Part shown: in pieces, positions 31,441 to 63,863 of the stretch
Position numbering within the stretch: position 1 is the stretch's first letter
Layout: each line of letters begins with the position of its first letter
DNA from: Sympetrum striolatum
Lineage: Eukaryota > Arthropoda > Insecta > Odonata > Libellulidae
NCBI GenBank assembly: GCA_947579665.1
Contig: OX388343.1
Coordinates: 91,740,254-91,804,253 of the forward strand
Direction: 5' to 3'
DNA: 64,000 bases
Made by a program: the position numbers and the translations under genes
The notes under the pieces: model-generated
What the model was told of the DNA's origin: nothing
Databases searched by the model: none
Seen by the model: the letters and a program-made list of their open reading frames with translations, nothing else

Positions 31441-31941
31441 CAGACCTTTTAGGACTCCTCAACCAGCCTTTCCCATCCACAAGGACCATGACATAAATCC
31501 CAGCGACCGCACACTTTCACGTCGAAATTTTTCTTTTCGGTTTTAATTGTTATATTCAAAATCCTCCAAAACGCATGCTAAAAACTTAAGACTCCGCTTC
31601 GCGATTTGTCTCCTTCATCGAACTGACGATCCTCCCAACAAAACTGCGTCTTTGAACGAATCGTCAAGATTACGACGGGCACAATTACGACGGGCTATAC
31701 GAGTACGGTCGGAGGAGGCGAGGCGATGGAAGCATGGGTCTCGCACGCGTCCGTGAGGGAAAGAACGCCATATCCACTACGGGACGATTTATTGCGGCGC
31801 CTAGGGGCGGACGCTAGGAGTTGCTCCTTAGGGCCGCTGCACAGACGCGTGCACTGTTTCCAAGCATTGCTCTAGACGCTTCCACGTCACAATCCTTTGA
31901 CCGGACTCAGTATATAAGCCCGTGGATTTTTAGGGAAAATC
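31441..31941 (+). promoter_or_regulatory. TATA/initiator promoter with GC-rich upstream region
   Basis: TATATAAG lies at 31911-31918. A TCAGA initiator (31940-31944) puts the predicted start A at 31942, 31 bases from the first T of the TATA box, which is canonical spacing. Upstream sequence is GC- and CpG-rich. It includes a 12-base direct repeat ATTACGACGGGC at 31669-31680 and 31684-31695, which may be paired binding sites. The direction points into the hairpin array at 31952-32238. It could be a stand-alone polymerase II promoter or the U3 of a retroelement LTR. I looked for TG...CA ends with a short duplication and found none. Confidence 0.5.
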
Positions 31942-31951
31942 AGAGCGTCCC

Positions 31952-32004
31952 TCGCTCTCGCTAGCTGACAGTGTCTGCCTACAGACTTCGGCAAGTGAGA
32001 GCGA
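31952..32004 (+). other. First, variant hairpin of the array
   Basis: The outer stem is formed by 31952-31962 and 31994-32004 (10 of 11 pair). An inner stem GCTGA/TCGGC (31964-31968, 31988-31992, one G-U) follows. The GTCT/AGAC core (31973-31976, 31983-31986) encloses a six-base loop. The core and loop resemble those of the 58-bp units, but the outer arms are unrelated in sequence and still pair. Confidence 0.55.
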
Positions 32005-32009
32005 CCCCC

Positions 32010-32241
32010 GGCTGACCGAGTCTGCCCAAAGACTTCGGCCGGGGTTCCCCGCTTCTCAACCCACCCCGGCTGACCGAGTCTGCCCAAAGACTTCGGCCGG
32101 GATTCCCAGCATCTAAACCCACCCCGGCTGACCGAGTCTACCCAAAGACTTCGGCCGGGATTCCCAGCATCTAAACCCACCCTGGCTGACCGAGTCTACC
32201 CAAAGACTTCGGCCGGGATTCCCCGCATCCGAACAACCCCG
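32010..32241 (+). repeat. Four-unit 58-bp tandem repeat encoding hairpins
   Basis: GGCTGACCGAGTCT starts at 32010, 32068, 32126 and 32184, exactly 58 bases apart. Each unit can fold as CCCGG, a CTGA bulge, CCGAGTCT, a six-base loop (GCCCAA or ACCCAA), AGAC-T-TCGG and CCGGG. In the last unit CCTGG replaces CCCGG and keeps pairing through a G-U. The spacer (TTCCCAGCATCTAAACCCAC) varies more than the stem. The sequence is strongly GC-rich against its flanks. Confidence 0.8.
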
Positions 32242-32292
32242 TAAGGGCTTCTTCCTTTCCCCAACAGATCGAGTCACCATAATCGTAAGAAA

Positions 32293-32298
32293 AATAAA
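32293..32298 (+). terminator. AATAAA poly(A) signal after the hairpin array
   Basis: AATAAA lies about 55 bases after the last hairpin, followed by a T-rich TATATTTTC stretch. Its position relative to the upstream promoter fits a short polymerase II transcript. AATAAA is also frequent by chance in AT-rich DNA. Confidence 0.35.
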
Positions 32299-32315
32299 AT
32301 GATTATTATCATCAA

Positions 32316-33347
32316 AAAGTATATTTTCATTCAATTCCTAAAGTCGACCAACCGCTACGACACGGTGATAAGCAAGATCGAATAGTAAACAGGAATATGG
32401 CTGTTAATCAACGGAAGGGAAAGAGAAGAAGGGGGAAATGTGTAAATACGGAGGGAAAACAAGCACTGTGATGAATTACCCGACAAACACTTCTTCTGTT
32501 AGAACTCGGGAAAACCCATTAAGGGTAGAACTTTCAATATGTTAATTCAATGAATAGAGCCGTCCTTTAATTATTTCTCAACTAGGATTTAATTACGGTT
32601 AAACACTAATAAACGCAAATTAATAGAAATGAACCCTCAAATTTAGATGGCCTAAATATAGAATCCACAGCTTTATTGGGATCCTCAGCGCTCCCTATAT
32701 CATAAATTGCAAGTTTCCTTACTTAACCTAAGCAGCACAGATTTGCAAAATTGGTTACAATAACTTGCATACAAGCGGGCAAAAAATAAGTATTAGGGGT
32801 CTCCATTGAGGGAAGTTTATCGAAAATAGTTCCTCCAGAAAAGATATACTGCGGTGCAGTTTGTATACAACACAAAAGGTTTCAAAATTCATTATTGAAG
32901 TTTTAAATTTACGTAAATATAATTTATAGTATATAATTAATGCAAATAATTTTTATGTCAACCATGAGATATTTGCCTCAATAAAATTGATGATATATCT
33001 AAGACAATTTATGTATGATTTGTGATGGAAGGACAATTCACCTCTTTTTGCATCTAGAAAATTTGGATGGAATTACCGGGTACTGATATATTTACAGCAA
33101 TCTTTCACCACTTGAGTGGCACTGGTCAATGGCACACTGTTTAAGCCACGATATCTCGAAGATTATAATGTTTTAAATTCCGATTTGAACACGCGCTTTA
33201 GATCTATGAGATGATTTTACATTCAAAGGCGCTCGTAATGAGGGTATTAAAACACACAATTCTACGCTTGGTGTTCTTATTCAATTTAGACCAAAACCAT
33301 GAAACGAGTGGTTTCGTGAGCGTAAAGTTTGCATTGATACATTAGTG
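32316..33347. other. AT-rich non-coding stretch
   Basis: Nothing is recognisable. A CCTCAATAAAATTGAT segment near 32975 may be a very diverged family X piece. Confidence 0.4.
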
Positions 33348-42549: not shown

Positions 42550-42560
42550 ATAATTATTTT

Positions 42561-42734
42561 GGATAAAGTTCTCTCGGGTTACAAGCCGGGTGATTTCTTC
42601 TACGTCTCTCAACATTTCGGTCCCTGTCTCTGGAACCATCTTCAGGAGCGAAGCGATGGTTCCGGAGACAGGGACCGAAACGTTGTGAGACGTAGAAGAA
42701 ACCACCCAGCTTGTAATCCGAGAGAACTTTATCC
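42561..42734. repeat. Long inverted repeat Q, 80-bp arms
   Basis: Arms 42561-42640 and 42655-42734 match as reverse complements at 74 of 80 positions, with a 14-base spacer. Each arm contains a GAAGATGG-type start (or its complement), GGTTCC/GGGACC and CGAAACGTTG or its relative. Both minus frames at 42544-42769 simply read through the palindrome. It is probably the end of a foldback or retroelement family. Confidence 0.8.
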
Positions 42735-43419
42735 ATAATATTCGCCTGGAAAACACCAGATCCTTTCATAATTATTTTATTGTTAAAAAGTTATGTTCGT
42801 TTTATCTTTTAATCAAATTAGGGTGATACGTATGGTAAACAACGAGTTCAAAAAGCATAATATACAATACGGGGGTTGGAACAAAGTTGAGAATGTTGAT
42901 CAATGTTGAGAACCCAACCGAACCCCCGTTGAAATATTTAAAACACCCGCATATCTGACTGAGCAACGTTGCCGTGCGTCAACGGGTCATTTCTAGTAAA
43001 ATCACGAAAAATCTTAATTTTCATCGTAGAACGTCGATCAAAAGACGCTTGTATATCTCTTAGGACGAGTGAGACGACGAAGATAAAAAATTGTTGCTCA
43101 TTTGAATTGTTTATAACTTTTTAAATCGTATTTTACGCGGTCAGTTTTTTATGGTCCCCCATGATGAGAAGGTCGGGCGCTTCCGAGCTGGCAAGCCTAG
43201 CTAAGGGTCCGACCCGGATAACTACCATTAACCTAAAATTGAGAATATGACATCATATTCACTGGACGAAATCAGGAAAATATATTTTTGCATGGCCTGT
43301 ATTTAACGGATAATGGTGATATTTTGATAATTTCTCTGTCGGATTATTTCCAAATATATTCCAAAGTTTTTATTTGAATCCTCTGCTCCTTCCTATTTTG
43401 GCAATACCTTTTGATAAAC
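42735..43419. other. AT-rich stretch with small foldback
   Basis: A 61-bp structure at 42869-42929 has ends ACGGGGGTT/AACCCCCGT, an inner GGTTGG/CCAACC pair and two copies of GTTGAGAA. An inverted GGTCGG/CCGACC pair lies near 43171-43207. Otherwise nothing is recognised. Confidence 0.45.
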
Positions 43420-54180: not shown

Positions 54181-54690
54181 ATTGTATTGTTTATTAATAA
54201 ACTTAAATATGTATTATGTGTATGTATGTACAAGTACAGGTTTGTATATTGGCTTTAGGCAGTGATTAAGAATAAAGATGTATATTGGAATTGTTGTAGT
54301 AGTATTGTTAAAAGTGCTTCGACAGCTGAGGTCATTTCGCACATTGGCTCCAACCGGGAATCGAACCCGGGACCGCTTTCACCAAAGGCGAACGCGCTGT
54401 CCACATGACTATCCGGGAGCCCATTGGAATTGTTTTCCTATACATTGATTCTATACATTGATTTTGTTGAATTGTTTTCCTATATAATGATCCTATATAT
54501 TGATTTATTTTTGCAAATGTGATCTCAGTATACATTTATTGCATTGTATTCTTTTCTTTTCCTTGTTATTGATGTTTTTGAATTTATTTGATGTTTTGCT
54601 TCATTCTATATGTATTTTTATATTGATTATGTATTATGTAAATGGGTTAATACCCGTACTAAATTCATTATTATTATTATTATTAATAGC
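54181..54690 (+). repeat. Probable LINE 3' region with (ATT)n end
   Basis: T-rich non-coding sequence ends in GGGTTAATACCCGTACTAAA and (ATT)n at about 54665-54690, a form typical of LINE 3' ends. SINE A is inserted inside it at 54296-54422. Its left limit is uncertain; it may be continuous with family P. Confidence 0.4.
54296..54422 (-). mobile_element. SINE family A, full copy with 12-bp duplication
   Basis: ATTGGAATTGTT lies directly on both sides (54284-54295, 54423-54434). On the minus strand the head has GGCTCCC, an A-box-like TAGTCATGTGG and a perfect B box GGTTCGATTCC. A body of about 50 bases (AATGTGCGAAATGACCTCAG...) follows, ending in (TAC)n. The head keeps a tRNA-like fold with GGCTCC(C)/(T)GGAGCC ends. 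Polymerase III would transcribe it and a LINE would supply reverse transcription. Confidence 0.85.
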
Positions 54691-63720: not shown

Positions 63721-63732
63721 ACGAAGATTCTT

Positions 63733-63863
63733 GGGCTCCCGGATAGTCATGTGGACAGCGCGTTTGCCTTTGATGAAAGCGGTCCCGGGTTCGAACCCCG
63801 GTGGGAGCCAATGTGCGAAATGACCTAAGCTGTCGAAGCACTTTTAGCAATACTACTACTACT
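63733..63863 (+). mobile_element. SINE family A, full copy with 12-bp duplication
   Basis: ACGAAGATTCTT lies directly on both sides (63721-63732, 63864-63875). The head has GGCTCCC and GGGAGCC, a perfect 7-bp acceptor-like stem. It also has the A-box-like TAGTCATGTGG and a B box GGTTCGAACCC. The body AATGTGCGAAATGACCTAAG... ends in (TAC)n. It agrees closely with 54296-54422, so the family has been active fairly recently. Confidence 0.85.

What the first reader, a model, noticed from the sequence alone, without database searches (positions are those of the whole stretch)
31952..32238. Five-hairpin array with a compensated first hairpin
Four exact-period 58-bp units each fold into the same bulged stem with a six-base loop. 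The preceding variant unit keeps the GTCT/AGAC core but swaps the outer arms for an unrelated pair that still matches at 10 of 11 positions. In unit four CCTGG/CCGGG keeps pairing through a G-U. Keeping pairing while sequence changes suggests selection on RNA or DNA structure.
Basis: partly seen in the sequence, partly recalled or inferred. Interest (0 to 1): 0.75.

Follow-up and report, generated by a model that had tools for sequence, protein, structure and literature searches.

The report
Repeated RNA hairpins in retrotransposon LTR
The five hairpins are not a lone repeat or RNA gene but part of the terminal repeat of a recently active Ty3/Gypsy-type jumping gene, where base pairing has been kept while the sequence around it changed, which points to a repeated RNA signal used in the element's own life cycle.

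Summary
In detail: five bulged hairpins share one core (5 exact hits in the window, none expected), and the sense strand folds far better than shuffles while the antisense does not. What it is changed once the host genome could be searched. The block 31659-32362 is a copy of a long terminal repeat (LTR). It recurs many times, mostly as same-strand pairs 2.6-8.5 kb apart, with TG...CA ends, 4-bp target duplications, a tRNA-Leu primer site and RT-RNaseH-integrase inside: a Ty3/Gypsy-type retrotransposon. The window copy is an isolated LTR. By its TATA box, initiator and AATAAA, the array fills the predicted R region, directly after the predicted cap site and hence at both RNA ends. Across 27 LTR copies, shared variants fall at 4/152 stem sites against 29/145 unpaired array sites (P=1.3e-6); every shared stem variant keeps or creates a pair. 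A sister family keeps the GUCU/AGACUU upper stem but has other lower stems and loops. Structure-level selection is well supported. Function (Gag binding/packaging, or TAR-like control) is inferred; no RNA data were available. New variant of a known kind.

The parts
31659..32362 (+). Isolated LTR copy of a Ty3/Gypsy-type retrotransposon; other copies begin with TGTCGT just before this block and end with ACGACA. This copy lacks the 5' TGTCGT, a matching target duplication and any internal sequence beside it.
   Evidence: Among the 29 loci other than the window's own (L001), alignments start at 31659 in 27 (L009 and L018 align from 31684) and end at 32362 or 32363 in 27 (L002 stops at 32341, L026 runs to 32376); window ends printed
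31659..31941 (+). U3 / promoter part of the LTR (predicted)
   Evidence: Lies upstream of the predicted start site; 41 places listed at 99-100% identity, 125 candidates of which 40 scored
31911..31918 (+). TATA box TATATAAG; a TATATAAG also lies upstream of R in the sister LTRs
   Evidence: relaxed TATA+initiator pattern has 8 hits on the two window strands, one of them here; L083 at 414, L091 at 950, L092 at 598
31942..31942 (+). Predicted transcription start: A of TCAGAG, 31 nt after the first T of the TATA box
   Evidence: Sequence; inferred, not measured
31952..32004 (+). Hairpin 1: 11-bp outer stem (one G-U), A-A mismatch (U-A in 7 of 26 scored copies), core GCTGA[CAGT]GTCT[GCCTAC]AGAC[T]TCGGC
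32006..32044 (+). Hairpin 2 (unit 1), 10+5 bp, 3-nt 5' bulge, 6-nt loop
32065..32101 (+). Hairpin 3 (unit 2), 9+5 bp
32123..32159 (+). Hairpin 4 (unit 3), 9+5 bp
32181..32217 (+). Hairpin 5 (unit 4), 9+5 bp with an extra U-G; mean pair probability 0.58 in the whole transcript
31943..31958 (+). Alternative cap-proximal hairpin AGAGCG/CGCTCT that competes with hairpin 1 for the same arm; hairpin 1 is favoured in the fold
   Evidence: -7.9 kcal/mol alone; scored outer pairs of hairpin 1 near 1.0 apart from the A-A position
31942..32312 (+). Predicted R region (start site to about 15 nt after AATAAA), holding the whole array; no ATG before 32299 (not significant, P=0.135)
   Evidence: end inferred
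32293..32298 (+). Polyadenylation signal AATAAA; weak alone (201 A[AT]TAAA on the + strand of the window); an AATAAA also lies between the hairpins and the LTR end in the sister LTR L083
32313..32362 (+). U5 (predicted), ending CTACGACA

Best explanation
The array is the R region of the LTR of a young, multicopy Ty3/Gypsy-type retrotransposon, and the window holds an isolated LTR of it. Transcription from the LTR would place one divergent clamp hairpin and up to four near-identical bulged hairpins next to the RNA cap and again next to the poly(A) tail. Shown: LTR identity, multicopy pairs, strong sparing of stems, shared wobble changes only in the sense-RNA direction, and reuse of the upper stem in a sister family. 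Inferred: that R is transcribed as predicted, and that the repeated core (GUCU/AGACUU upper stem plus 3-nt 5' bulge) is a multivalent protein-binding site, most likely for the element's Gag/nucleocapsid in packaging or dimerisation of genomic RNA, which would let internally deleted copies be mobilised in trans. The lower stem acts as a clamp whose sequence is free if it pairs.
For: LTR: 41 matches in the host genome, 17 same-strand pairs among them; common edges. Of 12 pairs with both LTRs fetched, 11 show a 4-bp target duplication and one (L002/L003) does not (read). The 11 other 5' LTRs are all followed by ATTGGTGTCAGG, and TGGTGTCAGGTG is complementary to the 3' end of tRNA-Leu(UAA) genes plus CCA. 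Pfam RVT_1 3.8e-42, RT_RNaseH_2, Integrase_H2C2 and rve in the middle piece of the 8.5-kb copy. Selection on stems: 4/152 against 29/145 shared-variant sites; with slightly different pair definitions loops 7/30 against stems 5/154, P=7e-4, bulges 0/15. All 5 pairs with a stem change shared by at least two copies keep or create a pair; breaks other than the A-A of hairpin 1 are private to single copies. Sense fold z=-7.18 against antisense -1.28. Core pattern 400 times in the genome, reversed control 0. Sister LTRs L083 and L092 carry two hairpins and L091 one match with GTCT-TTCG-AGACTT. Trans mobilisation: of 15 places with an RT fragment 93-99% identical, 14 have only a 71-aa open frame, while 11 of 13 compared LTR pairs are 98.0-100% identical, six of them at 100%.
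Against: No RNA, protein-binding or mobility data. Copies are closely related and units can be homogenised by gene conversion, which can mimic constraint, although loops inside the same units vary more. The difference between bulges and loops is not significant (P=0.077). Whole-R folding is not significant in sister families (z=-1.2 in L083, -0.5 in L091), and L091's minimum-energy fold does not show the expected hairpin. Five other 5' pieces (L085, L086, L088, L089, L090) show no convincing core hairpin; three of them have a bare GTCT...AGAC match, in L085 and L086 upstream of the TATA, and LTR placement in the five was not verified. Nothing ties the hairpins to Gag rather than another factor; that choice is inference.
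Confidence: 0.6

Rival explanations
1. TAR-like control: the cap-proximal hairpins bind a host or element factor that governs transcription elongation or translation of the element RNA.
For: Position just after the predicted cap site in R and architecture (5' 3-nt bulge, short upper stem, 6-nt loop). Lentiviral R forms TAR, which recruits Tat (PMC12789967, passages). Bulge sites show no shared variants, 0/15.
Against: The apical loop, important in TAR (recalled), is not conserved here: it varies within the family and is UUCG in the sister family. No trans-activator gene was looked for. Lentiviral TAR is not repeated five times (recalled).
Confidence: 0.25
2. No function: a minisatellite in an LTR, kept similar by unit homogenisation, with hairpin 1's arms made by a template-switch mutation.
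For: 58-bp exact period; unit number varies 1-5 between copies. Template switching can create perfect stems in one event (PMC8794818, abstract and opening). 9-nt gap and flanking similarity at hairpin 1. Covariation among the five window hairpins is modest (46 of 500 shuffles as high).
Against: Variation avoids stems but not loops in the same units. All shared stem variants keep or create pairing and the shared wobble changes fit the sense RNA. A sister family keeps the upper stem with new lower stems. L087 shows the same pattern with unrelated sequence: four units whose 30-nt arm-to-arm stretch differs at one loop base only.
Confidence: 0.12
3. The hairpins assist minus-strand transfer in reverse transcription, since R must pair between the two RNA ends, and unit-number change is a by-product of misaligned transfer.
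For: R would occur at both ends of the predicted RNA; unit number varies. One element (C11, L024/L006, same AAAT duplication on both sides) has a 4-hairpin 5' LTR and a 5-hairpin 3' LTR at 89% identity, as expected if two RNAs recombined.
Against: Strong structure is not needed for R homology (general knowledge), and the mixed element could also come from later gene conversion.
Confidence: 0.12
4. A stand-alone host noncoding RNA gene made from this solo LTR, or a small-RNA precursor like the tandem hp-CG4068 hairpins of Drosophila.
For: TATA, initiator and AATAAA at proper spacing around the array. Tandem hairpin-RNA loci exist in flies (PMC10317233, passages).
Against: Same sequence in many dispersed LTRs. 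The window copy differs from L003 at one position in 704, so there is no sign of site-specific evolution. Stems of 14-15 bp are short for Dicer (general knowledge).
Confidence: 0.04

Closest known systems
Ty3/Gypsy LTR retrotransposons (named relatives in databases: Pol of transposon 17.6, 412, 297)
   Same: RT-RNaseH-integrase order, TG...CA LTRs, 4-bp duplications, tRNA primer site; RT piece 44-47% identical to proteins named after 17.6, 412 and 297 from a spider, a bee and a plant bug, among the best 120 of 2472 hits listed
   Different: Predicted R of about 370 nt filled by 1-5 bulged hairpins; no report of this was seen in the listings of ten library searches, only one of which was aimed at LTR R regions
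Lentiviral TAR in R
   Same: A structured element in R, directly after the cap site (PMC12789967, passages); recalled: stem with a short 5' bulge and a 6-nt loop, as here
   Different: Up to five copies here; loop not conserved; no Tat-like protein known; the element is not a lentivirus
roX RNA stem-loops of Drosophila
   Same: A short box repeated in stem-loops, whose number correlates with X-chromosome occupancy (PMC4719309, passages)
   Different: Host lncRNAs for dosage compensation; a recalled roX box pattern is absent here
hp-CG4068 tandem hairpin RNAs
   Same: Tandem hairpins on one transcript with copy-number turnover (PMC10317233, passages)
   Different: Dicer-2-dependent hpRNA locus; stems here are 14-15 bp (hairpin 1: 11+5+4 or 5) and lie in an LTR
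Structured long R regions of retroviral LTRs
   Different: Those passages cite R lengths up to about 150 bp and speak of tandem repeats in U3, not in R

Membership tests
LTR retrotransposon | Paired direct terminal repeats flanking one internal region | tested here: met
   17 same-strand pairs among 41 matches; common edges. The window copy itself is unpaired.
LTR retrotransposon | Target-site duplication | tested here: met
   4-bp duplication in 11 of 12 pairs and in 4 of 4 other unpaired LTRs (L009, L017, L018, L019), read; the window copy shows none
LTR retrotransposon | TG...CA LTR ends | tested here: met
   TGTCGT...ACGACA in other copies; the window copy lacks TGTCGT
LTR retrotransposon | Primer binding site after the 5' LTR | tested here: met
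   TGGTGTCAGGTG; matching tRNA 3' ends, 36 pattern hits against 5 for the reversed control, lie in tRNA-Leu(UAA) genes in 5 of 6 loci tested
Ty3/Gypsy | Pol order RT-RNaseH-integrase | tested here: met
   in two pieces of L061
Ty3/Gypsy | Aspartic protease upstream of RT | tested here: inconclusive
   DTGA piece in L005, RVP E=0.0032, below Pfam cut-off; PDB hits to retroviral proteases E=0.36 and weaker
Ty3/Gypsy | Placement in a clade by Pol phylogeny | not tested
   No tree built
TAR element | Cap-proximal bulged stem-loop in R | tested here: met
   By predicted start site only
TAR element | Conserved apical loop (feature recalled) | tested here: not met
   Loop varies; UUCG in the sister family
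TAR element | Tat-type activator and Tat-dependent transcription | not testable with these tools
   No expression data
Known Rfam family | Match to a covariance model at gathering score | tested here: not met
   0 matches in the window; with permissive threshold two chance-level hits, best E=3.2, both on the minus strand
roX RNA | roX box motif (pattern recalled) | tested here: not met
   Pattern absent
hammerhead ribozyme | CUGANGA core (pattern recalled) | tested here: not met
   Pattern absent

The most novel reading that the evidence does not exclude
A clade of Ty3/Gypsy retrotransposons has evolved a modular, expandable array of TAR-like protein-binding hairpins in R, with a fixed bulge/upper-stem core on interchangeable clamp stems and loops. 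Unit number would tune packaging or expression and would let deleted derivatives parasitise the autonomous copies; an unrelated 4-unit array in another family (L087) would be a convergent case.
Probability: 0.25. Interest if true: 0.75.

Novelty: new variant of a known kind. Interest (0 to 1): 0.45.

Why it matters
R-region RNA structure is well studied in retroviruses but little described in Ty3/Gypsy elements (recalled). Here one genome offers copies with 1-5 hairpins, sister families with different clamps and loops, and non-autonomous derivatives, so the effect of hairpin number and sequence on packaging, expression and strand transfer could be tested by comparison. It is also a warning for genome scans: a TATA-to-AATAAA unit with conserved RNA structure can be a solo LTR rather than a host RNA gene.

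Tried and rejected
Stand-alone RNA gene: my working idea until, based on TATA, initiator and AATAAA; dropped when the sequence proved multicopy and LTR-bounded. Coding origin: no open frame in the window scored above block-shuffled sequence in a rough codon model (3 shuffles), and 20 frames had no Pfam hit at cut-off. Known RNA families: none. Relatives elsewhere: none in viral contigs, prokaryote contigs or phages; protein searches with spurious frames of both strands found nothing. Covariance model R1 gave, besides the array, two weak matches (12.6 and 12.3 bits), one of them the antisense of hairpin 2. Promoter motifs near the TATA (one TGACGTGG, one TGCACGC) were not pursued. The short RT fragment of the derivatives had no Pfam hit and only weak PDB hits (MLV RT, E=0.12). 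Literature: 10 searches; no description of this array was seen in the listings.

Full report
Observation. The five hairpins are present where stated. The 58-bp unit occurs 3.9 times at 32006-32229, and a variant hairpin precedes it at 31952-32004. The shared core GCTGAN4GTCTN6AGACTTCGGC hits five times exactly and never in 100 shuffles. Single hairpins fold with z between -3.1 and -4.8. The 374-nt sense strand has z -7.18 and the antisense -1.28. Unit-to-unit differences fall at 1 of 28 paired and 9 of 30 unpaired columns (hypergeometric P 0.008, or 0.045 without the last three columns).

Hairpin 1. It shares 25 of 29 core letters with hairpin 2 but only 4/12 and 3/12 outer letters, yet its outer arms pair at 11/11 with one G-U. 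Chance is about 1e-4. This is weaker evidence of repeated compensation than it looks. Aligned to hairpin 2, the 5' arm sits in a 9-nt gap and the flanks are similar, and template switching is proposed to make such stems in one step (PMC8794818, abstract and opening seen). The formal pair count on the five hairpins was suggestive only: 97.1% of cells paired (13 of 500 shuffles as high), two pairs changed on both sides (46 of 500 as high).

Identity. Once the host genome answered, 41 matches to 31942-32260 were listed (125 candidates, 40 scored). They comprise 17 same-strand pairs 2.6-8.5 kb apart, six places without a listed partner and one fragment. The fetched loci share one block, 31659-32362: of the 29 loci other than the window's own, 27 align from 31659 (L009 and L018 from 31684) and 27 end at 32362 or 32363 (L002 stops at 32341, L026 runs to 32376). 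Other copies begin TGTCGT and end ACGACA. Eleven of the twelve pairs with both ends fetched carry a 4-bp duplication (for example TAAG, ATTA, TCTC, TAGA); L002/L003 does not. Four other unpaired LTRs (L009, L017, L018, L019) also carry one (all read). The sequence after the 5' LTR, ATTGGTGTCAGGTG, is complementary over 12 nt to the 3' end of tRNA-Leu(UAA) with its CCA. A middle piece of the 8.5-kb copy encodes RT, RNase H, H2C2 and integrase core. Its RT part is 44-47% identical to proteins named after transposons 17.6, 412 and 297; the best hit, 69% over 62% of the query, carries no name (best 120 of 2472 listed). This is a Ty3/Gypsy-type element. The window copy is an isolated LTR that differs from L003 at one of 704 positions but lacks TGTCGT and a matching duplication, so how it came to lie there is unclear.

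Activity. Thirteen LTR pairs were compared. Six are 100% identical (L005/L004, L012/L011, L014/L013, L015/L016, L020/L021, L047/L051), L007/L008 and L022/L023 are at 99.86%, L027/L028 and L029/L030 at 99.54%, and L025/L026 at 98.0%. L024/L006 (89%) is mixed; for L002/L003 the comparison picked a longer nested alignment (97.9% over 1208) and is not an LTR measure. Of 15 places with an RT fragment 93-99% identical to the query, 14 have an open frame of only 71 aa; of four longer relatives at 84%, three have open frames of 1199-1536 aa and one of 405 aa. The short copies are therefore non-autonomous, and their young LTRs imply mobilisation in trans.

Place of the array. TATA at 31911, the initiator TCAGAG with its A at 31942, and AATAAA at 32293 put U3 at 31659-31941, R at about 31942-32312 and U5 at about 32313-32362. 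The array fills R. This is sequence inference; no transcript data were available.

Selection. I aligned 27 of the 38 distinct LTR copies then fetched, leaving out mostly second LTRs of a pair. Variable sites are 20/152 in stems and 51/145 in unpaired array positions (P 1e-5). Sites with a variant shared by at least two copies are 4/152 and 29/145 (P 1.3e-6). Diversity is 0.0165 in stems, 0.0817 in unpaired array positions and 0.0377 in U3; stems against U3 for shared variants gives P=0.014. With slightly different pair definitions, shared variants are stems 5/154, loops 7/30, bulges 0/15 and linkers 21/98; loops against stems P=7e-4, bulges against loops P=0.077. The shared stem changes are A-A to U-A in hairpin 1, C-G against U-G at one position in three units, and G-C to G-U in hairpin 5: all keep or create a pair in sense RNA. 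Other breaks occur in single copies; L060 has the most (9 of 49 pairs), then L017 (3 of 77). Because sites, not sequences, are counted, relatedness inflates this less, but unit homogenisation remains a caveat.

Number. Counting with up to five or six mismatches, fetched LTRs carry 5 (L001-L023), 4 (L024-L030, L047, L051), 3, 2 or 1 hairpins. To avoid choosing copies by their array, U3 alone was searched. Of its 41 places, 14 fall in the stretch covered by the printed list of core hits: twelve have 4 or 5 exact cores, one has 3, and one, apparently cut by a nested insertion, has 1.

Sister families. In the family 78-80% alike in the RT fragment (L083, L092) the LTR end and primer site are alike, and R holds two hairpins with GTCT or AGTCT, a UUCG loop and AGACTT, on lower stems unrelated to the focal ones; L091 (80%) has one such match. 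Isolated cores fold as expected in L083 and L092 (z -0.6 to -2.1), not in L091, and whole R regions are not exceptional (z -1.2 and -0.5). L087 (71%) has four tandem units of 47-51 bp with unrelated sequence; each folds alike, and its 30-nt arm-to-arm stretch is exact in four units but for one loop base, but the unit energy is not exceptional (z -0.6) nor is its R region (z +1.5). Five further pieces (L085, L086, L088, L089, L090) showed no convincing core hairpin; LTR placement in those was not verified.

Mechanism. The invariant part is the bulge and upper stem; loop and lower stem are replaceable. Repetition, the place next to both RNA ends, and retention in copies that depend on proteins in trans fit a multivalent RNA-binding site. 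Packaging elements in retroviruses often include stem-loops and bulges that bind Gag (PMC12789967, passages), which makes Gag the first candidate. TAR-type control is the main rival. Variation avoiding stems but not loops argues against a functionless minisatellite.

Noticed in passing
L024 and L006 (G000:C11:38335490 and 38331056): One element with the same AAAT duplication on both sides has a 4-hairpin 5' LTR and a 5-hairpin 3' LTR, 89% identical: a likely recombinant of two element RNAs, or later gene conversion.
   Followed up: partly
L087:963-1140: The LTR of another Ty3/Gypsy family holds four tandem 47-51-bp units with unrelated sequence that also vary in one loop base and in the linkers, not in the arms.
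   Followed up: partly
L083:868-1125: 61-bp repeat, 4.2 copies at 100% match, directly after the primer binding site of the sister family.
   Followed up: no
L002 (G000:C8, near 40867147): An LTR apparently cut inside the hairpin array by another insertion of the same family; the L002/L003 pair shows no 4-bp duplication.
   Followed up: no
31635-31680 and 32345-32385: The window LTR is nearly identical to L003 but lacks the 5' TGTCGT and any target duplication, unlike four other unpaired LTRs.
   Followed up: partly
42555-42740: Fold-back inverted repeat with 86-nt arms, 92% complementary, 14-nt spacer.
   Followed up: no
54293-54423 and 63732-63862: 131-nt inverted pair, 94% complementary, 9.3 kb apart: probably a dispersed repeat.
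   Followed up: no
31943-31958: Six-base-pair cap-proximal hairpin that shares an arm with hairpin 1, a possible alternative fold.
   Followed up: partly
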